Shown here: piece by piece, positions 1,833 to 41,313 of the stretch
How the letters are laid out: each line of letters starts with the position of its first letter
Position numbering within the stretch: position 1 is the first letter of the stretch
DNA from: Rhodamnia argentea
Lineage: Eukaryota > Streptophyta > Magnoliopsida > Myrtales > Myrtaceae
Length of the DNA stretch: 64,000 nucleotides
Assembly: GCF_020921035.1 (NCBI RefSeq)
Contig: NC_063151.1
Location: forward strand, 26,914,934 to 26,978,933
Direction: 5' to 3'
The notes under the pieces: generated by a model
The model's input: the letters and a program-made list of their open reading frames with translations, nothing else
Told to the model about the DNA's origin: nothing
Databases searched by the model: none
Made by a program: the position numbers and the translations under genes

Positions 1833-2841
1833 CCCCATCTGTTGAATTAAATGAAGGAAATGACGCATGAAGGAGATTTTTTATGGTTGAAGGAAGAAGT
1901 GAGGGAAATAAAATTGTTTGCTTGTTCAGTTATCAAATAACAAATTTGAAACGAGGGTTACTACTGAAACAAGAATAATCAGAGATTTCAAATGTTCCCT
2001 AAACTTATAACAGAAGGTTATCTGCCCTCTTATTTAGACAAGCACTTGTGATTTTGTTTTTTTGGGTCGAAAGAACTTGTGATTTGACTGCGGAGGAAAT
2101 TGGCATATGTTGAAAGATATATGGTTTGCGGGTAAAACCCGAAAAGCGCTAAGAAATATATCTCACCCGACCAAAAAGAGGCTTGTTTACAGAAGACAAC
2201 AGAACATGCTGGTGAATGCAACTTCAACAATTATAAGCGCTTGTCATCAACACTAGGAAAAAAGCAAGGTGGAAAAATGCGAAAGAAAAGCACGGATTTG
2301 ACCATCTGTTGTTGCTACAAATCTATTCCTCTTTCATCCCGATCCCATCACATTAATTTGTTGGGAGACAGAAAGAGAATTGTCTATTTTTCACTGAGAC
2401 AAAAATTGGCACTTGTTACTGTAAAGTCAATCATGCAGAAGCAATTGCACTTCGCGCTCTACCTAACCAAACATTCTCCGATAGGCAGATGATGAACACT
2501 CTTTTGTCCATGACATCAATGGATAACACGGTTTAAAGTAGACTATAAGATCAATACTGTACATAGAGGCGAACAAATTCAATCATATTGCAAACCCTCC
2601 TTCATTTTAGTTTTGCCAATGTTAAACTAATGGCAGATGTAACCACACAACCATTCAGATGCCAAATCAAAGATCTGAACTTGTTACAAATCATATGGAT
2701 AAGACATGCACAAAGCTGCATTTGTCTTCCATGGAGGAAGAAAAATCTAACGAACACAGCAGGAGACATTGCCAACTTACCGTATGACCCAGGGCATCGA
2801 AAGAAAGTTCTCCGTATCAGCTAAGAAGATGCAGGCGTATC
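1833..2841. other. Intergenic spacer between convergent invertase copy 1 and GLYR pseudogene
   Basis: This is the shared 3' flank of the two convergent genes and matches 14070-15078. Short open frames are kept in both copies, but recent duplication explains that and their codons show no family I recognise. It contains one micro-insertion with a duplicated flank (2044-2085). Confidence 0.7.
2044..2085 (-). mobile_element. Micro-retroposon: poly(A) tail remnant with 11-bp target duplication
   Basis: The repeat ACTTGTGATTT occurs at 2044-2054 and 2075-2085. Between them are 20 bp that read on the minus strand TCTTTCGACCC followed by an A run. The same insertion is at 14282-14323 in the other duplicate, so it predates the duplication. 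Confidence 0.7.
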
Positions 2842-2943
2842 TCATTGTTTCGCTTTAAGTGCTTCAATGACTGCTGAAAAGTCCTGGTCACTCAGGCCAT
2901 GAGACTTTGCTACTTTGTACATTTCATTTGCCGCTGCTGCAAC

Positions 2944-5351
2944 GGGGTGAGATATAAAATTTCAATGAGTCAACGCCTAAGTTCGAGTAGGACATTGACT
3001 CGCTTAAGACATCCTAAGCATGCAATACAATAACGATAGTAACCCAAGAGCGTGCGATCCTTGCAACGCTTTACCAATCGTCGAGTCAAATCCAATATCA
3101 ACAATCCACCATCAAGCACATGCAAGCTTACTCTCACCTTGATCCACACATTAAATAATTCATATATAACATGCAATCAAATACAAACAACCAAGGTACA
3201 TAACCCGAACACTCATCATAAATTGCATGCACAATGCACCACACATGTTCCAATTATTAACGACCGTTCCCGGTCTTAGCAAAACCATGCTCTTTCGGCA
3301 GAATCGGGCACCGTTCCATTCCTTCGGCAACGGCAAGCGACAAACCATGTGGTTCCAAGTACCCTCGGCATGGATTAACGATCAGACATTCCCGTAGGGA
3401 ACGTCGGTCCGTCACAAGCTGCGACCGGCATCTAATAAGTCGTGTGGTTCCAAGTACCTTCGGCACGAACTTACCAGGCTCGAACCCTCGTATCCGAGGG
3501 TCGGCTTTGTCCTCACGTACCCGAGAAGACAGTATCCATTATGTGACCACACACGCACGATAGGCAACCGGCCAATTTATATCTTTGCATTTAACCCAAT
3601 GCACATATACAAACAGTTGTGCTCAAAACTTGGCTCGATGCCATTTTCATGCTTAAAATATCAGTCTATACGTGATCACATAAATACACATATTGTCCAC
3701 CGGACTTTACATCTATATATATAGGACAATCGGTTATCAAATTCACACCAGTCGGGACACTCAACAGTCACCAGACAATCACCCAACAATAATAATTCAA
3801 TAATTAATTAACAATTAAATAATTATCGCGATACTAATTAATTGATTTAATTACAATTAAACTAGCAATTAATAAATCTCGAATATGAATAATTAAATCT
3901 ATCTTAATTAATTAACCCGACTTTCGTTAATCTATCTCAGTCAATTAATCCATGCTTCGATTAATTATCACCTTAATAATAAACTGATCTAATATCAGAC
4001 AAACAGTGTAATTATAATTTAAATAAATACATCTAGCACCCGCTAATTATTTTTATCGCAGTCCACAACAATTGCTCTAATTCTCGAACGCAGTTAACAC
4101 CCTAATCAGAGTTTAGGAGTCGACTCACTACTCCGATGTTCGATGTAGAGTCGGGCGTGGTGGTGTCGAAATCGGCGACACGAGTTGAATCGGGTCTCGG
4201 ATTACTGTTTGGGTCGGGTTGCGGTTCGGGTCAGATCTCGGGTTTTGGGTCGTGTCAGATATCGGGGTTCGGGTCGGGTCAGGCGGGCTACTGTTCACGG
4301 CATGGGGATTTCGGGTGGCTGGGGTGGAGGAGCTGGCGTCGGGGGCTGGTGGTCGGCGATGGGGCGGGCTGGACACGGCGGTGGGGCTGAGCACGGCGCG
4401 ACTGGAACGGAGGTGGGTCGCGGCCGTGGGTCTCGGGTGAGGTGCGAGTAGCGGAGGAAGGTCGTGGTAGCTCAGATCTGGGTTGGATAGGCGTCGGGGA
4501 CGGGGGCGGTGGCTGGGACGAGCTTGGACAACCACGACTCTCCGGTGTCAGGGTCGCGAGCTCGTGGATTTGGGTCTCGGTTCCGGCGGTGTCGCGGGTT
4601 CGAGGCAGCAGCGGCGGTTCGGCGAGGCGACGGCACGAAGGACGAACAGCCGGAGTGGTGCGACGGCGGACGAAGGTGGAGGCTGGGTGGTGGTGGCTGT
4701 GCGGTTGGGTGTCGCACGGTGGAGAGGTTGGTCGCTCGGTTGCAGAAAAAGAAAGAAAGAAGAGAAGTGAAGAAGAAAGAAGAAGAGGAAGATGATGTAC
4801 GGGAGATGGGATGGGATGGGCTGTCGCGCAGAAGAGAGAGGAAGAGAGGCAGAGAGAAAAGAAAAGAAAAAGGAGGGGGCAGTCAGCACGTGGAGGAGGG
4901 AAGAGAGAGAGAGAGAGAGCGCATTGATGGAAGAGAGAGAAAAGATGGGATGTAGAGATGGAGATGGGTTTTCACCGGGGGGGGAGGGATTTCGGTCAAA
5001 GTAAGAAGAGAGAGTGGGTCTATGATCTCTTCAAAATTAATTTTTTTTTTTGTACTGCTAAAAATCTGAGGGTAGATTGGTAATTGGTAAAAATAGATAC
5101 CGGTAGTCATTCGGCTCAATCGATTGAGAGCAAAATTAAAATTTTGGCATTTAGGATTCGGACAAGTCTGAATTTACGCGCGAAGGGTATCAACATTACG
5201 AGTCAACGTTTAACAATTCAAACTTGACTTTCTCTGACAGATATCTCGAAACAACCAATCATCGTCTCTTAAATCCTCAAAATCCAAATTTTATTTTTCA
5301 CGTTGGAATTCATAATTTTTCTTACAGACACCCAATTTCTAGGACGTCACA
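2944..5351 (-). mobile_element. 2.4-kb insertion, probable solo LTR of a retrotransposon
   Basis: Copy 1 and copy 2 match up to GCTGCTGCAA (about 2942 / 15179) and again from GATTCTATTTCAG (5352 / about 15267). The 2.4 kb between has no counterpart in copy 2, and about 85 bp of the original sequence is lost. On the minus strand the insert begins TGTGACGTCCTAG, a typical plant LTR start. It is AT-rich at its ends and has a GC-rich block (4128-4740) followed by GA-rich DNA (4740-5010). I find no protease, RT or integrase sequence and no clear target duplication. A solo LTR formed with a flanking deletion fits best. The GC-rich open frames look compositional, not coding. Confidence 0.5.
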
Positions 5352-6138
5352 GATTCTATTTCAGTTGAGGGTTGTCCTTACAAGTTTACAAACCTTCTGC
5401 TGATGCTTCAAAGGAAACGCCGGGGGATACTGGGATTGGACCATCGAAGGACCTTTGACTGAGTACATAGGTGCACTAATGGCTCCCTGTGACACCACCT
5501 GCAATATGACTAGGTCCCAGTCTCAATGTATCCTAAGAAGGAGCTTAGTTTGATTGATAAGGGAAAACAATAATAACGAAACCAATGAAAAGATAGATTT
5601 ATCTAAAGAGTAATCTTTTTGCTGCTACTTGAGCTCATATCCTTACTTGTGCGCTTCAGGCATTGTTCATTCACTTAGCCCGTATAGACAATATCCTGAT
5701 TTGAAATGGAGTATGCTCTTCAATTATAGGCATTGTTCATTCACTTGTAGCGTTTATATTACTTGGTTTACAAATACCTTTAAATGGTTTTGAGTCTTGT
5801 TAAACATTATGCACAAAAGTACTCCATAGTTTTGCAGTTTAGACATTTAGCATGCAAGGTTAAATGTGGAAGACTTATAATCCCTAAGCATGATCAATGA
5901 GCAAAGATATCAAGCAGCAAGTTTCTAAGTCAAGTTTAATACCATCCCACCAGTGTACCTGACGACAGTCATGTGATAGATATCCCTACGATTTTGTGGT
6001 GTTAGACTTGAACATCGGATGAATTAAAGGAAGATGATATCATTGACTGGAGCAACAGAAAGACAAATAACTCTGATCATCTTATATCAACAATCCATAA
6101 TTCATTGATGCACAGATATCCTTTCAGAAACGGTAATG

Positions 6139-6183
6139 TCAAGATATCTATTTGACCCAAAAAAAAAAAAATCAAGATATCTA
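6139..6183 (+). mobile_element. Micro-retroposon with perfect 12-bp target duplication
   Basis: TCAAGATATCTA is present at 6139-6150 and 6172-6183. The 21 bp between read TTTGACCC followed by 13 A. The orthologous insertion is at 16054-16095. It lies in an intron of GLYR. Confidence 0.75.
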
Positions 6184-7479
6184 CATTTTGTCAAAACCAT
6201 ACCGCAGATTATGATTTCTAGACATGTTAGAGTGCGTGACGTCAACAATACATCTAATGTAATTCGCATAAGCATCATAAGCAAGTGTATATAGCACATA
6301 TCCAGACATAAACAGCGTATACAGCACATATTAACACAAGTATCACTTGTGGTTAAAAGAAGTACCTCTACAAGTATATTAGGATCCACCCTACTTTCTC
6401 GCTAAGGAGTAATCCTTCAGAAAATGATGCCATCATACTAGTCAATGTCAAGAGAAGAGTGAGTGAGGGTTAGCAAGCACAATGATCAGCAAATCATTCA
6501 TGAAATAGAAACAATAAAAATAAAAATTCTGCAGCACCTTCCCATGATCATGTTGACAACAAGTTTCATAGCAGCTCCATTTCCAACATCGCCAAGGTAA
6601 AATTTTGACTGGGTTCCAACACTTTTGCCCTAAGCACAAGGATCATATTTGGCAAATGAAGGAGGAGAACTCAATAAAAAAGAGAGACTACCTTTCCCAT
6701 GATGTCAAGAAATGGAGCAACCATCTCATACAGAGCTTTGTCACCTGAATGATTACCAACACTACAATTACTCTATGGCGTACTTCAGTGCCAAAGAGAT
6801 GTCATTAGTATTTACGAGCAAATTATATTCTTCAAAGTTACTAGCAATTATGCTACTTCTACAATGCTCCATTCCAGGTATTTCACACAAGAATTGACAT
6901 TGAATAGGAAACATACCATGAACCACAAGTTTCAACTACTTAATGGATAAAGGAAATGAATGGGGCCTCCCTGCTGTGAGAAAGATCAATTGCCCATCTT
7001 CGGCAGGCTTTTTGGAGCCTGAAACAGGAGCCTGGAGGAAATGCATTTGCTCATCAAAATAGTTTCACGAAATCTAAATCACATCACAGTGTCTCAATTA
7101 AAAATTTACTGATATACTTCATCTCAATATAATCATGTATAAATGCAAGACAGTAATTTTACCTCCAAAAATAGTGCTCCAGTACCCTGGATACGACCAC
7201 TAATAAACTTAGAAGTGGCCCCATCAACTGTCGAAACATCCACATACCTGCCAATGAAAATGCATATTATTCAATTTTCCTGCGATATGTTATTTTGCAT
7301 GAAAAGAAGTATTTGAATATGTATGAGCAGACGCCTGCGAGATCCACTTGGAGAATGTCAGTAGAGCAATCATGCAATGCGGTTCCCAAGTTAATCAACA
7401 AGCTGCCAAAGATTGATGAAGATAGGCCAGGTGGAGAGAGAGAATAGGAGTTGCAAATTCTGATAATATAATATTGGCC

Positions 7480-8130
7480 CATCCGACTAATTTTCCTGCA
7501 ATTGTGTCAATTCAGTCCATTTGACTAATTTTGGCTGATCGGTGCCGACGTGGCAATTTTCAATAATTTTATTTTTATTTTTTTAGTTTCAATATGTTAT
7601 TTATTTTCTTTCGTTTTTATTCTTCCTTCTTCCTCTTCCTCCTCCTCCCGGGCTTGTTTCGTAAGGGCGAGGTCGACCTCACCGGCCTCCGGCAATATGA
7701 TGCAAGAAAGACGGCATTTTCCAAACACTTGAGGTGCATCGACAATGGCCTAGCAAAAAAATTGCGAGATCAAAATTGTAGAAATTGAGGGCTGTGGATC
7801 TGGCTAGGGAGAGCCTCACTCGAGGCCGGCGAGGTTGACCTCAACAAACAGCGATGAGGTCGCCCGACGAGGAGACCTTGCCCTTGCAAGGGGAGCCTCG
7901 CCTTGACTACAAGGGAGAAGGGAATAAAATAAAAATGAAAAATAATAAAAGTATCATTAAAAATTTTCACGCCAGTATGGGCCGATCAAAGTTGGGCGAA
8001 TGGATTGAATTGCCCAAATGCAAAATTATTAGGACTTCATCACTAAAAATAAAGGTTTAAGATTGAATTGGTACGATTGCAATAGGTTTTTAGGATTTTT
8101 ATGATTTTTATGATAATTCCACCCTAAACT
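7480..8130. mobile_element. Degenerate inverted-repeat (foldback-type) transposon at the duplication breakpoint
   Basis: The left arm (about 7490-7565) and right arm (about 7965-8035) are imperfect inverted repeats. The core CAATTCAGTCCATT on the left pairs with AATGGATTGAATTG on the right, and both arms hold a GATCGG motif. The interior is GC-rich and has no recognisable transposase. It starts exactly where similarity between the duplicated blocks ends. Confidence 0.5.
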
Positions 8131-8254: not shown

Positions 8255-8301
8255 TCTAATCCTCGTTTTTTTTTTTTTGGTCGAAAGTCTAATCCTCGTT
8301 T
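8255..8301 (-). mobile_element. Micro-retroposon with perfect 14-bp target duplication
   Basis: TCTAATCCTCGTTT occurs at 8255-8268 and 8288-8301. The 19 bp between read on the minus strand CTTTCGACC plus an A run. Confidence 0.75.
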
Positions 8302-9187
8302 ATAAGGTACAAAGTTGAAAGTTGACGTGTGATTGTGATCTTTCAATTTCCATCTCTTTTCCGGCTACGTCTAGAACAATTAAATTTCTCTCTCTCCCTC
8401 TCGTGAGACATTTATAATTTAAAAAAAAAAGCTAATTAAGCAAGCTTTATATTGTTTAGTCAAGTTTATATCCATAAATTAGCGACCACAAGTATTTGAA
8501 TGTTCTTTAATTTTGATCATTCGACATGCTTCGTAGTCATCGTTTTCGTCAATCGAACTTGTATTTCAAGGTCTTCACCCTCTTAAATATTTAACCAAGC
8601 TTTCCCTGAGGATTACATGAGGGAGCTTTGGAGTCTCATAGAGGAAAGTAACACTAAACCTGAGAGGGCATTTTAGTGCTAATAATGTGCCTACGTGTAA
8701 TTTTCAGGTTAAAGCGGAGTAGAGAGCACAGCTGCTAATGACGCACGCATAAATTCCGTCATTATTATGTATGGCCTGGACTCCTGCCATATGTTGGGGC
8801 AATACTTTTTGTAGTTGTAACCCGAAAACTTGTAATTCTGACAATCGATACTGATAGTGAAGAAATTACCTAATGTTGCACTGTGATTTTTTCCTTTATA
8901 ATTTTGAAAGGGTTTTTCACGTAAAAATTACGTGTTTATGATTTCTTTTTTTTTTTTCTCTTCGACTATTTGCGTTCCTAACATTAGAAACCAAATGTCA
9001 TTTCGCTTCTAATTTACCAGAAAAACCGACCTTTCCAACCTTCGTAATTTGTGAAAAATTAATTTGAATTTTGAACATTTGGAACGTTTCAAAGGGTGCA
9101 AGTCCGTACGGAAACTTTCTGCAATACTTCACGCCTTCGGTTTGGCCTCCAAAGATTGGTCAACTCGTCAACCACGGCACGCATCAA

Positions 9188-9227
9188 ATCAATGGAAATT
9201 TGACCAAAAAAAAAATCAACGGAAATT
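9188..9227 (+). mobile_element. Micro-retroposon with 13-bp target duplication (one mismatch)
   Basis: ATCAATGGAAATT at 9188-9200 and ATCAACGGAAATT at 9215-9227 flank TGACC plus an A run. This is the shortest insert of the series. Confidence 0.65.
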
Positions 9228-10517: not shown

Positions 10518-10559
<42 letters not shown>

Positions 10560-10715: not shown

Positions 10716-10755
<40 letters not shown>

Positions 10756-13700
10756 ATTTGCTTATTTTCTTGATTTCTTCCCCCTAATTACTTAACTTGT
10801 TCCTTGATGTTAACTCATTGTCTTATCATACCAAACCACCCAATTAGTTTTTTATTTTTCTGTTCCCCTGCTACTTACCATTGATATTTGTACAAGTTGA
10901 GAATTTAACAGATGCAGCAGCAGCCAATTTCTCTTTATTTCTTAAAATGCTTCAGTATTTTTTTCTGTCACGCTCGTAAAGACCATATTTGTTGTTTACC
11001 TCAACGTTGTCGGTTTTTAAATCTTGGGAGATTACCTGTTAATCTTAAAGCGGTGAATATATTTATCTTGTGGGATTAGGAGGACCAGAGAGACCTCAGA
11101 ATGTTGATTTTGACAGTGTAAACTATAGTATGCTTGACTGGTAACTTTACATCACTCATTTACTACGGTTAAATTATGTGGAAATGTTCGACCAAAAAAA
11201 AAAAAATTATGTGGAAATGGCCTGCTAAAGTTAAACCCAAATGGACAAATTGCACTGCAGGGCCAATGCTTTACAAGGGCATATACCATCTGTTCTACCA
11301 ATACAACCCGAAAGCCGCGGTGTGGGGCAACATCGTCTGGGCCCATTCCACATCGACGGACCTCGTGAACTGGACCCCACACGTCCCCGCCATCTTCCCT
11401 TCTCAGGAGTCCGACATCAACGGCTGCTGGTCTGGCTCGGCCACCATCCTCCCGGGGTACAAACCGGCCATCCTCTACACCGGGATTAACCCCCAGAACC
11501 AGCAGGTCCAAAACTTGGCAGTGCCCAAGAATTTATCAGACCCGTATCTGATCGAGTGGGTGAAATCACCCCACAATCCTCTGATGGCACCCACAGCCAT
11601 GAACCAGATTGACGCAAGCTCATTCAGAGACCCCACCACTGCTTGGGTGGGCCCTGATGGGAGGTGGAGGGTGATCATCGGGAACAAACGAGACAGGAGG
11701 GGAATGGCCATTCTGTACAGAAGCAAGGACTTTGTTCGCTGGACCAAGGCTCAACACCCACTTCACTCTGCTAAGAACACTGGGATGTGGGAGTGCCCGG
11801 ATTTTTTCCCAGTCTCTGCTCAAGTCCCCCTCGGCTTGGACACCTCCATTAATGGGCCAAACGTTAAGCATGTGCTCAAGGTGAGCTTCACCAACCACGA
11901 TCACTACACCATCGGGACTTATAACTCCACCACGGATAGGTATGTTCCCGACAAGGGATCGGTAGATAGTGATTCGGGGTTGAGATACGATTACGGCAAG
12001 TTTTATGCTTCCAAGACCTTCTTCGACAGCAAGACCAACCGGCGGATCTTGTGGGGTTGGATCGATGAGTCGTCTAGCAAGGACGACAACATCAGGAAAG
12101 GATGGTCCGGGATCCAGGTAAACATTTTTATTCCTATTAATATAACTATTGTAAAAGATAAGCGACTGCGAAAAATTCAAATGCTAGATTCACTTAAATT
12201 AGGCGAAATTGGGATATTATGTTTGGTGGCCTATGCAAGTGTTGATGGTCAGGAATGATTGTTTGGCAGGCAATTCCAAGGACCATTTGGCTGGACAAAT
12301 CTGGAAAACAGTTAGTGCAATGGCCGATATTGGAAATAGAGAAGCTACGCAACAACCAAGTTGTTTTGCCCAACAAATTGATTAAGGGAGGAACACTTCT
12401 TGAAGTGTCTGGTTTAACAGCTGCACAGGTGAGCTTTTCCATCAGGCATGTTGATAAGTTTCATTTGAGCCACAAGCCACCCACAACTCTAAACTCTTCT
12501 CCTTTTAATTTTCGGTAACCAATAAGTACCCGGCATTCGGCTTGTGGCTGTGATTACTCTTTAGGCTTCATCTTCATCGGTTTTCTTGGTTTTACTTCGA
12601 CAACCTCAAGGATTTTCTTCAAGATTACAACTTACCTATGGCTATCAGACAGTTTTTTGGGACCTGTGACAATTACTGAATCCGCACTCATTGCCTTGAT
12701 ATGAATTACTTCACACATGAATGAAATAACTTCCACATTAAGAAAAATTCCTTTCACGGGGAATATCATCCCGTGCTTTCTTGACACCGCACTATGGGCG
12801 GACCCGACTCTTTCGCTAACCTAACCCCCCTGTTCTTGAATGCTAAAATGGGTATGGTCCCTGCAATCTCCTTTTTGATTGCAGGCAGATGTGGAGGTCT
12901 TATTTGAAGTAAAAGGGCTCGAGAAGGCAGAAGTGTTCGACCCAACGTGGACCAACCCGCAAATGCTGTGTAGCCAAAAGGGTGCTTCAGTTAAAGGTAG
13001 CCTCGGACCATTTGGGTTGCTGGTCATGGCGTCAAAAGGATTGGAAGAATACACAGCAGTGTTCTTCAGAATTTTCAAAGGCCAGAACAAATATGTTGTC
13101 CTCATGTGTAGTGACCAGAGCAGGTCCAACCTCCCTCTCTTTATTTTCTTTCTTTATCTCAAGGGCACATATTCCACCCACCAATCCCCAGAAAGTTTCT
13201 GATTGTTGGCCCTCTGTATTTCTCTTTTCAGATCTTCCCTTAACAATAGCAATGATAAGACCACTTATGGAGCATTCCTGGATGTGGACCCTCTGCACGA
13301 GAAGCTGTCGTTGAGGACCTTGGTGAGTTCATTTAATAGATATGAACAACACTTCACATGTGTCTGATCTAGACTTGGAAATTCTTTCTGCATATCTAAT
13401 CTGGTAAATCTGTGCATTATATACATAAACTAATGGATCATCATAAGCGGCAAGTTGTAAAGTGTAACCCCATAGTGCTGATGTCCATCAAAAGCTTTCG
13501 TTCAGATTCCCACTGACTAAATTTAGCCAGATCCAGCATCTTTTTAAGTTTTTGACCTTTTGATTTGTCCCAACTCTGCATGTGGGAAGCTTACTCATAC
13601 CTATAAATGTCTCCATCTCCTTGGACTATTCTATGTTTAGTAGGTGTTGTCGCTTGTCATGCCAGTTTGGTACGATTCTCCATCTTCGGCATGCTTTAAA

Positions 13701-14069
13701 AGCTTAAAAGTTTCTCGAACCATCATCCTCCATTTTCGGCCAAACCCATTTCATTTGGGCACTCACTTTGCTGCACCCAATAAAGGAAACAAAGATGACA
13801 ATTCAGTGGCGAGAAGCCACGTTTCCGAATCCTAAGATATTGTCACTCATGATTAATTTGCTTTGACTATCTTCCTTTGCCTTCAACAGATAGATCATTC
13901 TATAGTGGAGAGTTTTGGTGGTGGAGGGAAGAGTTGCATCACAGCTAGGGTTTACCCTGTATTGGCTGTGGAAGATGGAACCCACCTGCATGTCTTCAAC
14001 AACGGGACTCAGAGTGTTGGAGTGCTGACGTTAAGTGCATGGAGCATGAAGAAGGCTAAGATCAATTGA
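10308..14069 (+). CDS. Cell-wall invertase (acid beta-fructofuranosidase, GH32), complete
   Basis: This enzyme hydrolyses apoplastic sucrose and is expected to be secreted and bound to the wall. Seven exons join in frame to 579 codons: 10308-10512, 10702-10710, 11261-12117, 12270-12428, 12885-13123, 13232-13322 and 13890-14069. An N-terminal hydrophobic signal (about residues 6-28) precedes a short basic propeptide. The catalytic marks are all there: NDPNG at 68-72 with the nucleophile Asp, RDP at 194-196, and WECPDF with acid/base Glu near 249. Pro in WECPDF marks the cell-wall class, where vacuolar enzymes have Val. A D-Y-G-K pair at about 315-318 favours sucrose invertase over fructan exohydrolase. 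Asn-X-Ser/Thr sites such as NST and NLS are present. Exon 2 is the classic 9-bp mini-exon. Length is normal for the class. It is a tandem paralogue of the gene at 20-1832. Confidence 0.95.
10520..10582 (+). repeat. (CT)n-(CA)n microsatellite in invertase intron 1
   Basis: An uninterrupted CT run (10520-10555) starts eight bases after the exon-1 donor and passes into a CA run (10559-10582). Confidence 0.95.
10702..10710 (+). other. 9-bp mini-exon of the invertase gene
   Basis: ATCCAAATG lies between AG (10700-10701) and GT (10711-10712). Joined to the final G of exon 1 and the first bases of exon 3 it completes N-D-P-N-G, the nucleophile motif. Plant acid invertases are known for this exon. 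Without it the protein lacks its catalytic Asp. Confidence 0.93.
10719..10751 (+). repeat. (CT)n microsatellite just after the mini-exon
   Basis: A pure CT run begins eight bases after the mini-exon donor, so CT runs follow the donor on both sides of the 9-bp exon. Confidence 0.95.
11173..11219 (+). mobile_element. Micro-retroposon with 14-bp target duplication in invertase intron 2
   Basis: ATTATGTGGAAATG occurs at 11173-11186 and 11206-11219. Between them are TTCGACC and an A run. It lies 42 bp upstream of the exon-3 start. Confidence 0.75.
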
Positions 14070-15078
14070 CCCCATCTGTTGACTTAAATGAAGGAAATGA
14101 CGCATGAAGGAGATATTTTTATGGTTGAAGGAAGAAGTGAGGGAAATAAAATTGTTTGCTTGTTCAGTTATCAAATAACAAATTAGAAACGATGGTTACT
14201 ACTGAAACAAGAATAATCAGAGATTTCAAATGTTCCCTAAACTTATAGCAGAAGGTTATCTGCCCTCTTATTTAGACAAGCACTTGTGATTTTGTTTTTT
14301 TTGGTCGAAAGAACTTGTGATTTGACTGTGGAGGAAATTGGCATATGTTGAAAGATATATGGTTTGCAGGTAAAACCCGAAAAGCGCTAAGAAATATATC
14401 TCACGCGACCAAAAAGAGGCTTGTTTACAGAAGACAACAGAACATGCTGGTGAATGCAACTTCAACAATTATAAGCGCTTGTCATCAACACTAGGAAAAA
14501 AGCAAGGGGGAAAAATGCGAAAGAAAAGCACGGATTTGACCATCTATTGTTGCTACAAACCTATTCCTCTTTCATCCAGATCCCATCACATTAATTTGTT
14601 GGGAGACAGTAAGAGAATTGTCTATTTTTCACTGAGACAAAAATTGGCACTTGTTACTGTAAAGTCAATCATGCAGAAGCAATTGCACTTCGCGCTTTAC
14701 CTAACCAAACATTCTCTGATAGGCAGATGATGAACAGTCTTTTGTCCATGACATCAATGGATAACACGGTTTAAAGGAGACTATAAGATCAATACTGTAC
14801 ATAGAGGCACACAAATTCAATTATATTGCAAACCCTTCTTCATTTTATTTTGCCAATGTTAAACTAATGGCAGATGTAACCACACAACCATTCAGATGCC
14901 AAATCAAAGATCTGAACTTGTTACAAATCATATTGATAAGACATGCACAAAGCTGCATTTGTCTTCCATGGAGGAAGAAAAATCTAACGAACACAGCAGG
15001 AGATGTTGCCAACTTACCGTATGACCCAGGGCATCGAAGGAAAGTTCTCCGTATCAGCTAAGAAGACGCAGACGTATC
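14070..15078. other. Intergenic spacer between convergent invertase and GLYR genes
   Basis: Paralogous to 1833-2841. No gene is supported. It contains the duplicated copy of one micro-insertion (14282-14323), and the 3' ends of two convergent genes fall here. Confidence 0.7.
14282..14323 (-). mobile_element. Micro-retroposon, paralogous copy of the one at 2044
   Basis: The same ACTTGTGATTT duplication flanks the same CTTTCGACC-poly(A) insert on the minus strand. Confidence 0.7.
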
Positions 15079-18000
15079 TCATTGTTTCGCTTTAAGTGCT
15101 TCAATGACTGCTGAAAAGTCCTGGTCACTCAGACCGTGAGACTTTGCTACTTTGTACATTTCATTTGCCGCTGCTGCAATGGGCGTGGATTGGGAAACAG
15201 ATTCTGCTAACCCCAGAGCAAGCCTCAGATCCTGCCAAAGTAAATAATACTGAGAGAGCATGCACGGATTCTATTTCAGTTGAGGGTTGTCCTTACAAGT
15301 TTACAAACCTTCTGCTGATGCTTCAAAGGAAACGCCGCGGGATACTGGGATCGGACCATCGAAGGACCTTTGACTGAGTACATAGGTGCACTAATGGCTC
15401 CCTGTGACACCACCTGCAATATCACTAGGTCCCAGTCTCAATGTATCCTAAGAAAGAGCTTAGTTTGATTGATAAGAGAAAACAACAATAACGAAACCGA
15501 TGAAAAGATAGATTTATCTAAACAGTAATCTTTTTGCTGCTACTTGAGCTCAAATCCTTACTTGTGCGCTTCAGGCATTGTTCATTCACTTAGCCCATAT
15601 AGACAATAATCTGATTTGAAATGGACTATGCTCTTCAATTATAGGCATTGTTCATTCACTTGTTGCGTTTATATTACTTGGTTTACAAATACCTTTAAAT
15701 GGTTTTGAGTCTTGTTAAACATTATGCACAAAAGTACTCCATAGTTTTGCAGATTAGACATTAAGCATGCAAGGTTAAATCTGGTAGACTTATAATCCCT
15801 AAGCATGATCAATGAGCAAAGATATCAAGCAGGAAGATTCTAAGTCAAGTTTAATATCATCCCACCAGTGAACCTGACAACAGTCACGAGATAGATATCC
15901 CTACAATTTTGTGGTGTCAGACTTGACCATCAGATGAATTAAAGGAAGATGATATCATTGACCGGAGCCACAGAAAGACAAATAACTCTGATCATCTTAT
16001 ATCAACAATCCATAATTCATTGATGCACTGATATCCTTTCAGAAACGGTAATGTCAAGATATCTATTTGACCAAAAAAAAAATTCAAGATATCTACATTT
16101 TGTCAAAACCATACAGCAGATTATGATTTCTAGACATGTTAGAGTGCGTGACGTCAACAATGCATCTAATGTAATTCACATAAGCATCATAAGCAAGTGT
16201 ATATAGCACATATCCAGACATAAACAGCGTATACAGCACATATTAACAGAAGTATCGCTTGTGGTTAAAAGAAGTACCTCTACAAGTATATTAGGATCCA
16301 ACCCTACTTTCTCGCTAAGGAGTAATCCTTCAGAAAATGATGCCATCATGCTAGTCAATGTCAAGAGAAGAGTGAGTGAGGGTTAGCAAGCACAATGATC
16401 AGCAAATCATTCATGAAATAGAAAAAAAAAAAAAAACAAAAAAAATTCTGCAGCACCTTCCCATGATCATGTTGACAACAAGTTTCATAGCAGCTCCATT
16501 TCCAACATCGCCAAGGTAAAATTTTGACTGGTTTCCAACACTATTACCCTAAGCACAAGGATCATATTTGGCAAAAGAAGGAGAACTCGATAAAAAAGAG
16601 AGACTACCTTTCCCATGATGTCAAGAAATGGAGCAACCATCTCATATAGAGCTTTGTCACCTGAACGATTACCAACACTAAAATTACTCTATGGCGTACT
16701 TCAGTGCCAAAGAGATGTTATTTGTATTTATGAGCAAATTATATTCTTCAAAGTTACTAGCAATTATGCTACTTCTACAATGCTCCATTCCAGGTATTTC
16801 GCACAAGAATTGACATTGAATAGGAAATATACGATGAACCACAACTTTCAACTACTTAATGGACAAAGGAAATGAATGGGGCCTACCTGCCGTGAGAAAG
16901 ATCAATTGCCCATCTTCGGCAGGCTTTTTGGAGCCTGAAACAGGAGCCTGGAGGAAATGCATTTGCTCATCAAAATGGTTTCACGAAATCTAAATCATCA
17001 CAGTGTCTCAATTAAAAATTTACTGACATACTTCATCTCAATATGATCAAGTATAAATGCAAGACAGTAATTTACCTCCAAAAATAGTGCTCCAGTGCCC
17101 TGGATACGACCACTAATAAACTTAGAAGTGGCCCCATCAACTGTCGAAACATCCACATATCTGCCAATGAAAATGCATATTATTCAATTTTCCTGCGATA
17201 TGTTATTTTGCATGAAAAGAAGTATTTGAATATGTATGAGCAGACGCCTGCAAGATCCGCTTGGAGAATGTCAGTAGAGCAATCATGCAATGCAGTTCCC
17301 ATCAGCAAGCTGCCAAAGATTGATGAAGATAGGCCAGGTGGAGAGAGAGAATAGGAGTTGCAAATTCTGATAATATAATATTGGCCAGAGACAACTTGAA
17401 ATGGCCATGCAATTTAACAAAATAGGCTTCACATGTTATCTGCTTCAATGCATCAGAAACTATTCTTGAAGTTAACAAATGACTTCAACGATGTGGAAAC
17501 AGCTGGTACTGAATGCGGAATGTAGTTGTGTGTCGCTGTTGGCCGCCTCGACGCATTCCCTGAGGAGCCGGATGATTCGGAGGAGTCATTTTCTTTAGGC
17601 CAGACTAACTTCAATGATTAGGACCTAAGTTATTTAATAACTGCGCCTCATAAACAATCAAAGGGATACAAAACATGCGCCACAATGCTGTAAAAGATAA
17701 AGCACCAACTCCTCAAATGGTCTCTCACCAAAAACATAAAACGGATGTCCATCTCATACACATGTAAGCAATGCTCATAGAGAAAAAGAAACAAATTAAT
17801 AGCACCCTTTTCCTGAACTCATTCCGTTAGCAGCTCCATGCTTCCCACATGCAACATCAACCTATGTTCAAGCAGCTCTTGGTCACTGTGAAAAAGTTTG
17901 AGCCACAACAAGAAAAGCAACATTGAAACATACGTACTGCACTTTCAGGATCAGCGAGCATGGCAAACGTGACATCACAAGTTGCAGCAACTTCTTCAGG

Positions 18001-22293: not shown

Positions 22294-23921
22294 GGGGCCA
22301 TGGCAACACTTTTGCTTCAAAATTAATTTTTTATCAGAAATTAATTTCTTTACTTCTACTTAGAAATAAAAGTTGATTTTTCTACTTCTATTTCAGAAAT
22401 TGATTTCTGATTAAGAAATTTATTTGGTTGAAAATTTCTATTTCTGAAACCATTTATGAAAAATTATTGTCTTTTTTTTTTTTTGGGTAAGGTAAGTTGT
22501 GAATTAACTTTCCAAAAGCAATACTTACAGGAGATGGTAGGCCGAACACAAAAATCTCGAACCCAAGGTTACATAGGTATTTATGAAAAAAAAAATATTT
22601 ATGAAAAATTATTGTCGACGATTGAAAAATTTATAAAACTTCATTTTTAAACTTTTTAAATTTCTTAAAAAATAATTTTTATGAGTAAAAATATTATTTA
22701 CATTTTAAAAATAAAAAAATTATTATTTTTTACTCCGACACCCGGCGACGGCGGCGGTGGTCACAGTGGTGGTTGACGACAAGGAGCGAGGCGGTGGTTG
22801 GTGATGTGTGGCGGCGAGGGGCAATTGTGGGTGGCGTCGTTGGTCAACGATGGGCGGCGGTTGGTGGTGCTTAGCGGTGGGGGGCGGCCAATGGATGGCG
22901 ATGGTGGGCGGCGACCAATGGAGGTTTGCGATGGGTGGTGATGGGCGATGGTCGGCGATTGATGGTGGTCGCAGGTGGCGATGGATGGTGGCGGGCGATG
23001 GTCAATAGTGGGTGACGACGGAGGCAAGCGAGGTCAAAAAGAGGATGCGGACGTAATGAAAAAAGGATGAGGCGAGAAGTACTTTTTAAATTGAGAAATA
23101 ACTTTTTTTAGCTTCTCAAATTGAGGAAAAAATAACTTCAAAATTCATTTCAGAAGTAGAAATTTCTTTCACAAGTAAATAACTTTACCAAATGAATTTT
23201 TGCTTCATAAGTTAAATTGCCAAACAGATTTTTGCTCCAAAAATGCTTCTGAAGCAAAAATCCACTTCTAGTTAGATTACTGTTCATATTTAGGAAGTGG
23301 TTTTCTCACTTGTGTAGGGCCCGCATGAAATCACTTACGAAATTCCATTTCTTCGCCGCAGGCCCATCCGACAGAGAAATATGTTTGATAAAAATCGGAT
23401 TGAAATAGAAATCCGTTTAGTAAAAAAATTGACTTATGATAAGATTTTTCACTTCTAATAGGATTTTTGGTCAATTTTGAGAAGTAAAAAATTTTAACTT
23501 CTCGGCTCCAAAATCACTTCTTGAACCACACCTGCCTCTACCGACCATTGTTGCCGCGGCCGCCGACCACAGCCGCGGCCACCGCCGCCGCCGCCCCGAC
23601 CAACCACCACCGCGGCGACTCGCGACCACCGTCGCCCATTGCCGCCGCCAACTACCACCGCCACCACCAACTACCACCGCCGCGCCCGCCGACCACCACC
23701 GAGCACTGCTGCCGCCACCGACTACCATCGCCGCCGCCGAAAATTTTGTTAATAATGTTTCAAAAGTAGAAATTTTCAACTGTTACCAAACAAATTTTTT
23801 TGATCAGAAGTCAATCTGACGCAGAAGTAGAAAAATCAACCTTCGCTTTTGAGAAGAAGTAGAGAAATCAACTTCTGATCAGAAGTTAATTTCTCGAAGA
23901 GAAGTGTTACCATGCTCGCCC
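22294..23921. mobile_element. 1.6-kb terminal-inverted-repeat element, possibly PIF/Harbinger-like, non-autonomous
   Basis: The left end GGGGCCATGGCAACACTT pairs with the right end AAGTGTTACCATGCTCGCCC as an inverted repeat. The similarity continues inward for well over 100 bp, with TTTCTACTTCT motifs on both arms. Flanking triplets are TGA and TTA, not a clean target duplication. Two GC-rich blocks (22738-23040 and 23535-23745) look like low-complexity DNA. No transposase is visible. The same family recurs at 42339-43156, where the flanks are clean TAA. The element begins about 70 bp upstream of the FHA-gene ATG. It may be a composite of two elements. Confidence 0.7.
22452..22616 (-). mobile_element. 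SINE-like insertion with 20-bp target duplication, nested
   Basis: A perfect 20-bp direct repeat (22452-22471 and 22597-22616, starting ATTTATGAAAAA) flanks 125 bp. On the minus strand the insert contains GGTTCGAGATT, which resembles a pol III B box, and ends CTTACCTTACCC followed by 14 A. This fits a 5'-truncated tRNA-derived SINE inserted inside the larger DNA transposon. Confidence 0.7.
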
Positions 23922-24979: not shown

Positions 24980-27900
24980 CTAGTTCTTTGGACCACCCCG
25001 ACATCGGACTCTCTTATATGTTATTATCTGTTTTGAAGCATGATGAGGAGCAGCCCTTTCATAACTGGACCTCAATTCATATGCTTCCTGCTCTGCACTC
25101 TCCTCTGCTTCACGAAAGCCAGTTGGTGTGAAGGTGGAACTTTTCTCCACAATTTCAGTTCCGTCAGGGTGAGAATTTTTATCAACTTCAATCCTATGTT
25201 CTTCCCTAGGACAAGCAACAGTCTTTCTTGTTTCCAACTCTTTTATCTGGTGAATTGAAAGCACAGGAACGATAAGAACATGCACAAAGTCTTGCCCCAG
25301 ACAATGAAGAATGCAACTTTGTACTTACCAACTCATGCATACAACTCCTACTCTGAGCATCCTATAAAAAAATTTAGGTTAGAATTATAAATTTTGCAAA
25401 AGAAGAAAATTATAATGAACTTCACTTGAGGTGAGCTTCACATACCCTTCTTTGGAGCTCATGTTTCAGGGCTGCAATCAATTTCAATAAGTACTTGTAA
25501 GCAGACTTGTGAGGTTCCTGTGTTATTGAAACATTTATTAAGACAAGCATGTCACAAAACCGAAGCAATTCTAGCAGACCCATCACCTGTGAGTTGGGAG
25601 ATAAGGGCAATCCTTCAACGTCAGGAACTTCTGAAAGCTGAACACACCGTGGGTTACCTGCTTCATCTGCCAAAAGCACACTCCAAGAAGGGGGATTATG
25701 AATCCCCACTGCCCCAAAATCAACTTCAGAACTCGTCCCAGCCATATAATGAAAGTGATCCATTGCAATGGAATCACCCAAAGCGTCCAGACTCTAATAT
25801 CAACAGAAAAAATGAGAATAAATTTTAGCGCAGCCAGTTAATCCAACTGCTAAGGGCATGTGAGATCACAAAACTAGGAAATTAGAGTATATATGGTAAA
25901 TGACATAGCATGTGCCATTTAGACAAGGGCATTAGCATACAAGATAAGCTCATTATGTTCTTATTTGATGAATTCCTTGCACTAGACATTTATAAGAACT
26001 AGATATCAGAACTTTCCGTCTATAGAAGACAGCTGGCAACACCAAGAATCACTGCCATATCTTGAGTCAAATATTTGTTAAATGGAGATTTGCTTGTTTC
26101 CCCTAAGGGCTAAAAGAGCCACTAACTTACCATGGACGTCGAGACTTCTTCTTCACATAAATCCACCTCATCTTCATTTTTTCTGACAGCGTAATGACAT
26201 GCCTGCACAATGGATTCCAACATATGGATTAGACACACCTACCCGATGAAAGACATAAGATATACCAAAGAGGTCATTGCCTTAGTGACATCTTCCTTTG
26301 AATTAAATCCGGGAGATAATGAAAGAAATCATGCTATTAGAGTAACAGGCTCATGGATAGCCTACCTCCAAAAGAGAAACAATATCCTCACATTTGCATA
26401 GCCAAAAAAAATAAATCCTCACATTCATAACTTTTCTTCTAACTATCCCAGAATGCGAAAATCTATATTTGATTCCTCTAAAGTAATATGCATAATTTCA
26501 CAGGTTCAGAGAGTAGAATCAATACCTTTGGTCTGTCTACAGCTCTGAATGAGCAGAACACGGGGGTAAAATTGGGTGGCTTCAAGATAGCATATGCGCC
26601 TTCATTTTTTCCCATCTCTTCAGGAAACTGCAAGACACAAACAGCGGCGGAATCTAGCTTAGATATTCTAGGCTGACTGCTCATGCTAAACCCGTGTCAA
26701 CTGAAAGACAACACATGAAAGATTCACTTTAATTAAAACAAGAGCGAACAAAATTTAAAAAATAAAATTGTGCAAATTCAAGAAAAACCAATGCCAATGG
26801 ACGGATTGTTGCACCATTTCTTCAAAACAAAAACTGAAGCATAGGCGCCATTAATGTGATTATTAAGCTCCTCTAGCAACCAACATCCAGGGGGAAATAG
26901 AAGAAAATATCAAGTGGAAAAAAATACATGGAGGTGGTGTGGCCAGTGGAAGTGGAAGAGCATTTGCAGAAGACCGGCACAGACATTATGATATTAACTA
27001 ACATGAACGTCTCTCATCAATAATTAAATATTCTCTCAACTAACTTGACTCTTCTGAATGGCGACTGAAAAATGGACAAAATACGGAAAGACACGAGAAT
27101 TTTCGTAAATAATAACTACCTCAAATTTTTTTAATAAATGGTAAAGATGCACAGCAGATATCCATATTCAACTAACAAAATAGGAGCTGAGATTAGCTAC
27201 GATACTGGGAAAATCAACAAAGATTAGAAAAAGGTTTCTGCCATTTCACATGCACCAACGTTCCTGTTTCCAATTATTCCCTAACGCCTTTTATAAATAA
27301 ATAATAATAATAATAAATAAATAAATAAATAAATCAAATAGGACCTTGGAATTTATCTTATGAATTCAATGGCACTTGGTAGCATGAATAAACTCGTGCG
27401 GGGCATATGAAACTCAACTTCAAGACAGTTATTAAAAAGAAAGCACAATATCAAGGACATGGAAAGATCCAAATAAAGCCACAATTACATGTTATCAAAA
27501 CATGTTACTGTTAGCGAACGGAAGTGAAAAGCGAGGAATAAAAAATGAGAACCTGTGTGTATTCTGGAGCACTGAACAGAGTAAACAGCTTCCCTGATAC
27601 TCCACTGTGATCCTCACTGTAGCCTTTGGACAGTGCTTCTAAAACTTTTCGACAAGCCCTTTTTTCAGGCCCTTCGTGTGATCTAATAATGAACTGCAGC
27701 AAGATAGCCCTTAATAATCACTCAGCTCTTGTAATACACACACAAAGAGCAAAAGCCCAGGACTCAAACATGACCAAAATCATAATCGAATGTAGACCAA
27801 ACTAAAATTCAGCGAGTCAAGTGCAAAAAGCCGGTTAACTTTCCAGTTTATATATTGAAGTCACAGTTCATTCCATTACTCTTAACCATCACTTCATGCT

Positions 27901-34865: not shown

Positions 34866-36356
34866 ATGGCGGCCAAATCACTGATCCGAAACGGAGCTTC
34901 GCTGGCGAACCGGCTTCTGATGAACCCTCTCCTTCGTCGGAACCCTAGTCCGGCTCAACGCGCTGTTTCTCCGAGCCTCGAGATCGCGCCGAAGCTGTTC
35001 CCTTCCGTCTCCAAATTCGATGCCTCTCTCCATTTGTACCGGAGCGACGCCGATTTCCTTGATCGAGCCTCTTCTCACCGTTTCCTTAATCCTTTCGGCA
35101 TGCCGTCTCTTAGCTTCTTCTTACCTGACAGTACTTACTCTGTCTCTGTCTCTCTGTCTCTATCTCTCTCGGTGATTGGTGTTCAATTTTTGGTTGCTTG
35201 TTGATAGCTACTGCGTTGTTGCCTTGTCGATAGATATTTCGTTTCCATGTGTAGTAGGACCCTGGAATTTGCATCGCAGGTGTTTATGTCGAGTTACTGG
35301 GATTACCAAAAATTTGGTCTCTTTAACAGTATGGTCTCCGGTGAAGTTGACAGTTTTAAATTTGATGAAATGAACTGTTATTGACCATCTTAAACACTCT
35401 AATTCATCGTACTCCCTGTCAATTTAGCGTGGTTGGCATGATAGTTCATTTTAAGCTTAATATTTGACCTGCAAGCTTTCCGAGATTCAGAGTACTCCCT
35501 GCTTCTTCTTCAAGGTTGGTGGAAGTAGCTTTGTTCTCTTTTCAACATGACAGTGCTTCTTCTATTTGTAATGGTATAAATTGTCCTGATTTCGCTGTCG
35601 CTTTTGCTGTATTTAGATGTAAAGGGTGACTGAATAATGAATAATCTGCGGACAACTGTTGGATTTGGTTGACAACCCACATCTCCTCTCTCTCTCCCCC
35701 TCTCTCTCACGTGCTTGCTTGTCCGATGCCTTTCTACATTCTCTTACTGTTTGCAAGGTTCCTTTTCGCGCGCAGGTGATGGGAACTCATCGAGTGATCC
35801 GATGCTCTTATCCACAAAGCGGACGTACCAGCCCAGTACCATTAGGCGTAAGAGGACACATGGATTCTTTGCTCGGTATGGCTTGCTATCCTTCTTCTTC
35901 TCTCCCAGTATGCGGGGTTGTATGCGAGCTTGCCATCAATGCGAGTTGTTTGAATCTCGTGACTGTGCCTGAGGAAAGAAAAACAATGGACTAAGAGAAG
36001 ACTGTTAGTTTGGAACTAGATGGAGAAATCATTCTTAACAGTGAATGACTCAACTACTGTCTTAAGGAGGGTTATAAACTGATCGTGCTGTGGTTGCTAT
36101 AGCAAATTGATGGGAAGGCTATTGTGTAGCTCTCCACCTGTTGCTGTTTCTCTCACTTTCGTAGTATTGTCTGTCCTGCTTTTTGACAATATATTTTCAA
36201 TATGGACGAGCTAATTGCTGGTTTGGAATTTACATCATTCGAAAATTTATCTTTTGACTTGTAACACTTTGCTACATAAACAGGAAGTCAACCAAGGGTG
36301 GTCGGAGAGTCATTGCTCGAAGAATAGCAAAGGGCAGGTCAAGAATTACAGCTTAG
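34866..36356 (+). CDS. Mitochondrial large-subunit ribosomal protein bL34m
   Basis: This is a component of the large subunit of organellar ribosomes. Three exons (34866-35130, 35776-35875, 36284-36356) join in frame to 145 codons. The last 45 or so residues are a complete bacterial-type L34: KRTYQPSTIRRKRTHGFFAR then KSTKGGRRVIARRIAKGRSR, ending TA. The preceding 100 residues form an Arg/Ser/Ala-rich presequence starting MAAKSLIRNGASLANRLL, which resembles a mitochondrial targeting peptide. The very basic short core and terminal placement are as in known nuclear-encoded mitochondrial L34. A plastid destination is less likely but not excluded. No operon-like context applies. Confidence 0.92.
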
Positions 36357-39286: not shown

Positions 39287-40857
39287 TCACCCGCCCCACA
39301 TGATCTGTTCCTTCTTGGAGTCCAAGGTTGTCTGCTGATCCCAGGTGGATGTCAGGCTAGGGTTCATACCAAATGGGCCACTTGATGATAAATCTGCTAC
39401 TAGAGAAGATGAAGAGGACGGCGACATCACCGATGCATCGACGGCATAGTTGCACCCTGTTTGATTGATGGCAGTAGAAATGTACGGGGGATAAATGTCT
39501 TGACATGACGCTGAAGATGCCGTCGGAAGAAGAAGGCATGATGATGCTGAGAGTTTGGCACCTAGTGGGTCTAATAACATTTCTTGCGAAGAAGAGGAAG
39601 AGGAAGTTGTGACCGGTATGTTGCAGAAACCGCTGTCGATGATGTCGCAGAGCTTCGGCATCGCCAGTAACATGGGTGAGTATTCGCCACAGGGTTGAAG
39701 AATCTCACTGGGATCAACAATCTTATTATCTCCATTGTCAGCGTAGTGTTCGGCCCCTTCGCTTCTGAAAGGTCGATCTTCTTGGTTTGGACCAATGACT
39801 TGGTGAAGCGGGTGTCCGAAAGACAAACCTTGATCATACAAAGAAGCTAAGTTGCTGCCTGACAAATGGGAGATCTGATGTGGGTAATGGACCAAATGAT
39901 CAAAACCGAAATTGGGCATTTCTTGTTGTTGTGATGGATCGAATTCAAAGTTGCCTTGACAAAGATTTTGCATCACATGAGGTATTGTTGAAGCAGTATT
40001 GCTATTAGGTGTAGGGAAATAAACCTGATCCTGTACCGGAGATGCTAAGATCAGGCTAGGGTTTGAAAGGAGAGAGAAAAACCCTTCTTGATCAGCAGCA
40101 TAAGGATTGTGGATCACATGATGATGGTGGTGATGGTGATGATCATGAGACATGAGCTTCTTCTTGATGCTTGAATTCCAAAAGTTCTTCACTTCATTAT
40201 CTGTTCTTCCGGGGAGGTGCTTGGCTATTTGAGCCCATCTGTGTAAACACAAAGTTTATTGAACACGAAGAACAATGGCAGGGAAAAAAAAAACATAGTG
40301 CACATTCATATGAATGAACCTGTTGCCCAAAATGCTATGGAGTTCAATGATGAGAGCTGCTTCCTGCTGAGAGAAGCTGCCACGTTTCAAGTCAGGCCTG
40401 AGATAGTTTATCCATCTCAGTCTACAGCTCTTTCCACATCTCTGAAGGCCTATAATTCCAGAGCAAGAGAAACATTACATAGCCAGAGAAAAGATGAGTT
40501 TACGGTAATTAAAGACCATTGGACCAAAAAAGGGCAAGAAAAGGAACACCAATCATGGTGAGTTCAAAGAATGTACGTGTATGAACTGGTTCAAAAACTT
40601 CATGAAGATCTAGAGTTAGCAACATATTTTTCAAGAAGTAATGCTGATCCATGCACGAGAATGTGAAGAACAATCTGAAGGTACAGAAGATTATTATGGT
40701 GTAAGGTATGTATACTATCATAACCTGCATGCTTGGGGACAGAGCTCCAGCAACCATGGCCATAAGTGGAGATGTAGTTTATGAGCTTCTCGTCTTCTTC
40801 AGGTGACCACAAACCCCTCTTAACCTTCTGCTTGTTGCAGCATGAATGGTGTCCCAT
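39287..40857 (-). CDS. MYB26: R2R3-MYB transcription factor, MYB26-type
   Basis: Three exons (40725-40857, 40320-40449, 39287-40238) join in frame to 404 codons. The start [20 protein letters not shown] is the conserved start of this clade, so the upstream in-frame ATG is not used. The R2 repeat (about 14-62) has its three Trp. R3 (about 67-115) begins with Phe in place of the first Trp, which is normal, and has [20 protein letters not shown]. Introns sit at the two standard R2R3-MYB positions. A His run follows the DNA-binding domain ([16 protein letters not shown]), as I recall for Arabidopsis MYB26, which drives secondary wall thickening in anther endothecium and so pollen release. The C-terminal region is Ser/Pro/Asn-rich and probably activating. 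The clade call rests on memory of the domain sequence. MYB67-like is the main alternative. Confidence 0.87.
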
Positions 40858-40881
40858 CTCTCTCTCTCTCTCTCTCTTCTG
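40858..40881 (-). repeat. (GA)n tract immediately upstream of the MYB start codon
   Basis: On the minus strand a GA run ends directly at the ATG, within the 5' UTR. Such runs are possible GAGA-factor (BPC) targets. Confidence 0.85.
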
Positions 40882-41262
40882 CCAGAACAAGAAGCCACTG
40901 GCCACAAGAGAGGAAAAAAATGGGGTACTTGGTATTTAAGAAAAGGTGAAGAGGAAGAGAGATGACTTTATCAGCTGGTTCTCTCTAGCCCTAGAACCAA
41001 CAGGTTGAAGGTCATGATGCTTCAAGAAAGCAACCAGACAAAAAGGCGAAAAAAAAAAAAAAAGGAGCGAGACAAACTATTTAATGAATAGACCATATCA
41101 TCTGTAATATGTATCATACGTGAGTCTGAGATACTCGAGAGAGAGAGAGAGAGAGTTGTTGTCATGAATTTAATGTCGAGTTGCAGTACAAAAATGGCGG
41201 ATGGTGGCCCAAGATTTGGAGACTTTTGTTGGAGGGAGGGGGTGAAAAAAAGAAAGAGGTGA

Positions 41263-41313
41263 ACTTACATGTGCCATTCGACCCAAAAAAAAAAAAAAAA
41301 CTTACATGTGCCA
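41263..41313 (+). mobile_element. Micro-retroposon with 14-bp target duplication
   Basis: ACTTACATGTGCCA at 41263-41276 and 41300-41313 flanks TTCGACCC plus a run of about 16 A. Confidence 0.75.

What the first reader, a model, noticed from the sequence alone, without database searches (positions are those of the whole stretch)
2044..41313. Recurring micro-retroposons: TTCGACCC-poly(A) stubs with 11-14 bp target duplications
At least six independent sites (2044, 6139, 8255, 9188, 11173, 41263) carry the same tiny insert. It is a 5' portion of variable length, drawn from the end CTTTCGACCC, followed directly by poly(A) and flanked by a direct repeat of 11-14 bp that is perfect or nearly so. 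Orientation varies, and the 5' end differs between sites (CTTTCGACCC, TTCGACC, TGACC). That is what target-primed reverse transcription would leave if it stopped after copying a few bases of a LINE/SINE 3' end. Two sites are shared by both duplicates and so predate the duplication. Repeat-annotation tools would miss inserts this short. They may be an abundant class of genome scar and source of small length variation.
Basis: partly seen in the sequence, partly recalled or inferred. Interest (0 to 1): 0.8.

Follow-up and report, generated by a model that had tools for sequence, protein, structure and literature searches.

The report
Tiny retrotransposition scars in a Myrtaceae genome
A tree of the myrtle family carries repeated inserts of roughly 12-22 bases, each a few recurring letters plus a run of A between two copies of the target site, which look like scars of a copy-and-paste element that stopped almost at once.

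Summary
At all six sites a head of about 7-11 nt ending in CGACC(C), or TGACC(C) (its CpG-decay form), is followed by poly(A) and flanked by 11-16 bp direct repeats. In the window 8 of 8 [CT]GACC(C)-A>=7 runs (six independent) are so flanked, against 1 of 93 other A-runs. Reversed sequence gives 0 hits, and the same motif in viral contigs 0 of 17. Two sites are shared by both halves of a 95%-identical tandem duplication, so they predate it.

In 300 kb from elsewhere in the genome, four inserts end in YGACC and three are near that motif. There only the motif test separates signal from background (3 of 5 against 14 of 375); the motif-blind scan is little above a reversed-sequence control.

Target-primed reverse transcription by L1-type machinery is the best explanation. 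Heads are short and no longer TSD-flanked copy with this end was found in 364 kb, but no source element was found either. The genome-wide search did not complete (25 tries), so source, copy number and empty sites stay open. Novelty: a new variant of a known kind.

The parts
2044..2085 (-). micro-insert TCTTTCGACCC-A7-CA (20 bp, 2055-2074) between 11-bp repeats AAATCACAAGT
6139..6183 (+). micro-insert TTTGACCC-A13 (6151-6171) between exact 12-bp repeats TCAAGATATCTA
8255..8301 (-). micro-insert CTTTCGACC-A10 or more (8269-8287) between exact 14-bp repeats AAACGAGGATTAGA
9186..9227 (+). micro-insert (TT)TGACC with an A10 run (shared with the repeat) between repeats AAATCAATGGAAATT / AAATCAACGGAAATT (1 mismatch)
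11171..11219 (+). micro-insert TTCGACC-A10 or more (11187-11203) between exact 16-bp repeats AAATTATGTGGAAATG, just 5' of an ORF stretch matching glycosyl hydrolase 32 (invertase)
14282..14323 (-). duplicate copy of the 2044 site: TCTTTCGACC-A8-CA, same 11-bp repeats
16054..16095 (+). duplicate copy of the 6139 site: TTTGACC-A10-T, same 12-bp repeats
41262..41313 (+). micro-insert TTCGACCC-A14 or more (41277-41298) between exact 15-bp repeats AACTTACATGTGCCA, about 1 kb beyond the 5' end of a MYB-type ORF
22452..22616 (-). comparison: longer retroposon-like insert (125-bp spacer) ending ACTTACCTTACCC-A13, with a tRNA-B-box-like GGTTCGAGATT, between 20-bp repeats; its 3' end is not that of the micro-inserts
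   Evidence: B-box label recalled

Best explanation
Each site is a germline insertion made by target-primed reverse transcription with L1-type (poly(A)-recognising) machinery. SHOWN: short head, A tail, flanking target duplication, TSDs mostly beginning with AA at the tail side, recurrence at separate sites in the window and at a few elsewhere in the genome, presence before a tandem duplication. INFERRED: the nicked T-rich bottom strand primed on the A tail of a polyadenylated RNA ending ...CGACC(A)n; reverse transcription stopped after only about 7-10 nt of body; second-strand nicking 10-16 bp away and repair completed the insertion. Different bases before CGACC at a few loci (CTTT-, GATC-, (G)TA-) hint at a few related source RNAs (a LINE lineage, or SINEs sharing its 3' end). 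The narrow head length hints at a stop near the RNA 3' end (structure or bound protein) or a small RNA template rather than random truncation; this last point is the least secure.
For: TSD enrichment in the window over four controls: other A-runs and mismatched flank pairs, viral motif loci, reversed sequence. Contingency test: 11 of 13 [CT]GACC(C)-A>=7 runs flanked against 15 of 468 others over 364 kb; outside the window 3 of 5 against 14 of 375, p = 7e-4. Motif-blind scans outside the window brought in L034 ACGACC-A7, L037 AGTACGACC-A8 and L041 TCCGACC-A9, and the near ones L019 GATCCGTCC-A15, L022 CGCTTGGACC-A12 and L043 CTTTGAC-A11; the second L037 insert GATCTGACC was seen by eye. TSDs begin with AA at 10 of 14 listed inserts (9 of 13 targets, the two L037 inserts sharing one) against a background AA frequency of 0.103; leading As can come from the tail, so this is indicative. 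Sharing by both halves of the duplication. Literature: L1 nicks 5'-TTTT/A(A) and primes on the A tail (PMC12016303, passages); TSD peak of 14-16 bp for full-length human L1 (PMC2912911, passages).
Against: No source element: no longer TSD-flanked copy with this end and no FADD-type reverse-transcriptase motif (recalled) among 12 xxDD hits in ORFs of 70 aa or more in 364 kb; a source cut by the 10-kb stretches or decayed by stops would be missed. Outside the window the motif-blind scan gave 19 forward hits against 12 in reversed sequence, so single loci there, L019, L022 and L043 above all, may be background. A tails are 7-16 long, human medians 30-38 bp (PMC12350158, PMC12016303, passages). 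Two of 13 [CT]GACC(C)-A>=7 runs have no TSD (L033:1585, L034:2491). Some A-tailed repeats in L034 look like a diverged minisatellite.
Confidence: 0.75

Rival explanations
1. Ordinary random 5' truncation of one LINE or SINE family whose RNA ends in CTTTCGACC(A)n; the short ones are part of a broad length distribution.
For: Seven loci fit CTTTCGACC cut at slightly different points (2044, 6139, 8255, 9186, 11171, 41262, L043). A possible poly(A)-only insert exists: L040 A15 between 12-bp repeats with one mismatch, as a broad distribution would give.
Against: No [CT]GACC(C)-A>=7 run has a TSD-flanked head longer than about 11 nt in 364 kb. Other loci show GATC- or (G)TA- before CGACC.
Confidence: 0.3
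2. Local repair scars (tandem duplication with filler, or slippage of an A-rich minisatellite), with no RNA template.
For: L034 5150-5320 and L037 1034-1110 show three or four successive target copies with A tails between them; outside the window reversed sequence gives 12 hits against 19 forward.
Against: In the window: the shared CGACC end next to the A run at separate sites, the one-sided A tail, 0 of 189 in reversed sequence and 0 of 17 in motif controls. At the window sites head and A run do not recur after the second repeat.
Confidence: 0.08
3. Reverse transcription of polyadenylated mature tRNAs: head = 3' strand of the acceptor stem + discriminator A + CCA, the stop being at the folded tRNA.
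For: 13 of 14 listed heads have CC just before the As, ending ACC, GCC, TCC or (with a third C) CCC; the longest are 10-11 nt, close to 7+1+2.
Against: The base before the discriminator would be G at 13 of 14 listed heads, while most nuclear tRNAs have C72 (recalled); CGACC recurs too uniformly; no tRNA gene in the 364 kb to compare with.
Confidence: 0.05

Closest known systems
5'-truncated L1-type (poly(A)) LINE insertions
   Same: A tail, TSD of 10-17 bp, mostly AA-starting TSDs, both orientations
   Different: head of only about 7-11 nt; no longer TSD-flanked copy with this end in 364 kb; human truncated L1s are usually much longer (recalled; the PMC12350158 passages say only that 72.5% of canonical L1 insertions are truncated or inverted)
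poly(A)-tailed plant SINEs and retropseudogenes (as the inserts at window 22452-22616 and L038 2146-2348)
   Same: A tail and TSD
   Different: those have spacers of 125 and 171 bp and other 3' ends (TTACCC-A, CTTTTAC-A); the micro-inserts carry no body
Filler insertions and templated tandem duplications at repaired breaks
   Same: short insert between direct repeats
   Different: no constant sequence or A tail expected (recalled)

Membership tests
L1-type target-primed insertion | target-site duplication of about 7-20 bp | tested here: met
   10-17 bp at the 14 listed inserts, four with one mismatch (9186, L034, both L037); the second L037 insert by eye
L1-type target-primed insertion | 3' poly(A) at or next to one TSD copy | tested here: met
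   A7-A16 at 13 of 14; the second L037 insert has AAACAAAAAAA; a few tails end in CA, TAA or G plus As
L1-type target-primed insertion | nick at a TTTT/AA-like site | tested here: inconclusive
   TSD begins with AA at 10 of 14, background 0.103; the A tail makes leading As ambiguous
L1-type target-primed insertion | orthologous empty site with a single copy of the target | not testable with these tools
   I had no related plant genome to read; the two duplicates share the insert
truncated copy of a named LINE or SINE family | homology to a longer source element with the same 3' end | tested here: inconclusive
   none found in 364 kb; the whole-genome search did not complete, so this covers only the sample
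tRNA 3'-end retrocopy | head equals an acceptor 3' strand + discriminator + CC | tested here: inconclusive
   CC before the As fits, G before the discriminator does not (recalled rule); no tRNA genes in the sample

The most novel reading that the evidence does not exclude
A distinct class of micro-retroposon: reverse transcription of a few related CGACC(A)n RNAs stops, or is completed, at a nearly fixed 7-10 nt, so that tiny copies outnumber long copies of the same family and number in the thousands per genome.
Probability: 0.3. Interest if true: 0.75.

Novelty: new variant of a known kind. Interest (0 to 1): 0.5.

Why it matters
If the class is genome-wide, repeat annotation would miss it. 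It would add a record of non-LTR activity, a supply of new A-run microsatellites and small indels near genes, and a natural assay for where a plant LINE reverse transcriptase stops near the RNA 3' end. Each scar has a clean empty-site prediction and could serve as a phylogenetic marker in Myrtaceae.

Tried and rejected
Whole-genome count and source search: one genome search was sent 25 times, each time answered 'busy'; nothing was learned.

Rfam at gathering threshold: 0 matches in the window. tRNAs: 0 in the window and in 30 further loci.

A long element behind the TSD-less L034:2491 A-run: no upstream copy of its right flank beyond two 8-mers. A 2,921-bp TSD-like pair in L044 has ORFs that look by eye like leucine-rich-repeat gene pieces; judged a gene duplication. 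LINE reverse-transcriptase motif: 12 xxDD hits, none FADD; the YVDD and one YIDD hit look like LTR elements (recalled).

One search also gave 10 hits with heads of 16-60 nt (shuffle mean 2.8). None ends in [CT]GACC(C) right before the As; one is the L037 double insert, and L039 (17-nt head, exact 10-bp repeat) may be another short insert. Three hits have no head (L040, L042, L045); L040 (A15) could be a poly(A)-only insert.

Rows dropped: of 14 outside hits with heads of 5-13 nt I kept six for their heads and dropped eight (L031, L034 three, L036 two, L043:636, L046). The narrow head length of the kept ones is therefore partly a result of choice.

Because of it and the L040 hit I lowered the novel case from 0.35 to 0.3 and interest from 0.55 to 0.5, and raised the truncation rival from 0.25 to 0.3.

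Papers: nine answered searches (two of them returned none) showed no such inserts in the titles and abstract starts listed; lists were capped and most subscription papers are not held, so this is weak evidence of novelty. Passages were seen in PMC8825457, PMC10191854, PMC2912911, PMC12016303, PMC12350158; all others only as listings.
Full report
WHAT THE SEQUENCE IS. The window is from a plant of the family Myrtaceae: a MYB-type ORF (39287-40252) is 90% identical over 97% of its length to Syzygium oleosum and 86% to Eucalyptus globulus. Five of seven ORFs scanned matched Pfam: glycosyl hydrolase 32 (invertase), MYB, epidermal patterning factor and two phosphoesterase pieces. There is a tandem duplication: 1-2953 and 5348-7479 match 12251-15190 and 15263-17386 at 95.1% and 95.7%.

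CHECK OF THE OBSERVATION. Motif-blind scans for direct repeats around A-tailed spacers recovered the reported sites; 9186 needs one mismatch in its repeats, so it appears but not. Of 14 rows, eight are micro-inserts of 17-22 bp (two of them duplicate copies), two are one 125-bp insert seen on both strands, four are weaker and longer; reversed sequence gave 2. Heads before the A run are TCTTTCGACCC, TTTGACCC, CTTTCGACC, (TT)TGACC, TTCGACC and TTCGACCC. The T in TTTGACC is what CpG decay of TTCGACC gives (inference).

IS IT CHANCE. In the window 7 of 8 GACC(C)-A>=7 runs have an exact repeat of 10 bp or more, against 1 of 93 others; pairing each left flank with every other right flank gave 7 of 10,100. 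With one mismatch allowed: 8 of 8, 0 of 85 'rest', 1 of 8 'other CC'. Two of the eight are duplicate copies. Seventeen viral-contig loci with TTCGACC(C) and A8 or longer, about 12 distinct contexts, had no repeat of 8 bp or more. Among all A>=6 runs, hits with heads of 0-15 nt number 9 of 189 in the window and 0 of 189 in its reverse.

OUTSIDE THE WINDOW the case is weaker. Thirty stretches of 10 kb (20 from the first 310 kb of contigs C1-C5, 10 at 5 Mb of C1-C10) gave 19 of 733 hits with heads of 0-15 nt, but reversed sequence gave 12 of 731. Many of both sets lie in A-rich or minisatellite-like DNA (L027, L031, L034). The shuffled-flank mean of 1.0 against 28 of 922 does not control for tandem repeats. 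What stands out is the motif: 3 of 5 [CT]GACC(C)-A>=7 runs are flanked, against 14 of 375 others (p = 7e-4). I accept as the same kind L034:6955 ACGACC, L037 AGTACGACC and, in the same target, GATCTGACC (by eye), and L041 TCCGACC; as possible L019 GATCCGTCC, L022 CGCTTGGACC and L043 CTTTGAC. L046 TGGAT-A11 with a 15-bp repeat is another short insert with another head. Grouping of heads as CTTT-, GATC- and (G)TA- before CGACC is by eye on few loci. Four to seven in 300 kb would mean very roughly 4,000-7,000 in the 319 Mb of the ten contigs whose lengths are listed; the sample is small and uneven. The window, picked because a reader saw the pattern, is denser (six or seven in 64 kb).

MECHANISM. 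A tail, TSD of 10-17 bp, and TSDs starting with AA at 10 of 14 listed inserts (background 0.103) point to nicking at T-rich sites and priming on poly(A), as described for L1 (PMC12016303, passages). The A tail makes the leading As ambiguous. TSD lengths resemble those of full-length human L1 (peak 14-16 bp), whereas short TSDs are over-represented among truncated L1 (PMC2912911, passages); this leans weakly towards a completed copy of a short template, but the sample is small.

THE UNUSUAL POINT. Inserts with this motif have heads of 5-11 nt, mostly 7-10, and no TSD-flanked insert with a longer head and this end was found in 364 kb, while two longer retroposon-like inserts with other ends were (window 22452-22616; L038 2146-2348). 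Against a strictly fixed length: L040 has an A15 run with no head between 12-bp repeats (one mismatch), L039 a 17-nt head with another end, and my choice of loci outside the window used the head. So the departure from 'variable length' is a lead, not a result.

THE DUPLICATES. In both shared sites copy 1 reads CCC before the As and copy 2 reads CC (CCC-A7 against CC-A8; CCC-A13 against CC-A10-T). Slippage or dislocation at the C/A border is the simplest reading (inference).

NOT DONE.

VERDICT. In the window, a real and non-random set of tiny retrotransposition scars; elsewhere in the genome, a few more of the kind. The TPRT reading is likely; the source and the reason for the short length are open.

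Noticed in passing
window 26384-26425: Micro-insert of the same size with an unrelated head (TGCATAGCC-A8-TAA) and exact 11-bp repeats: the size class may not be tied to one source.
   Followed up: partly
L037 1034-1110: Two A-tailed inserts with different heads in one target, so that the 13-bp target appears three times.
   Followed up: partly
L034 5150-5320 (- strand): Four diverged copies of a TATAATTG-type target separated by three A-tailed short heads; either serial insertion at one site or a minisatellite.
   Followed up: no
L040 position 967 (- strand): A15 run with no head between 12-bp repeats with one mismatch: a possible poly(A)-only insert.
   Followed up: no
window 2954-5347: About 2.4 kb present in duplicate copy 1 but not in copy 2, which has 72 bp (15191-15262) there.
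   Followed up: no
window 2055-2074 / 14293-14312 and 6151-6171 / 16066-16083: Both shared inserts differ between duplicates at the same base: CCC before the A run in copy 1, CC in copy 2.
   Followed up: partly
L038 2146-2348: 171-bp A-tailed insert with 16-bp repeats and an internal inverted repeat (by eye); 3' end CTTTTAC.
   Followed up: no
L034 position 2491 (- strand) and L033 position 1585 (- strand): Two [CT]GACC(C)-A>=7 runs without flanking repeats; the exceptions to the rule.
   Followed up: partly
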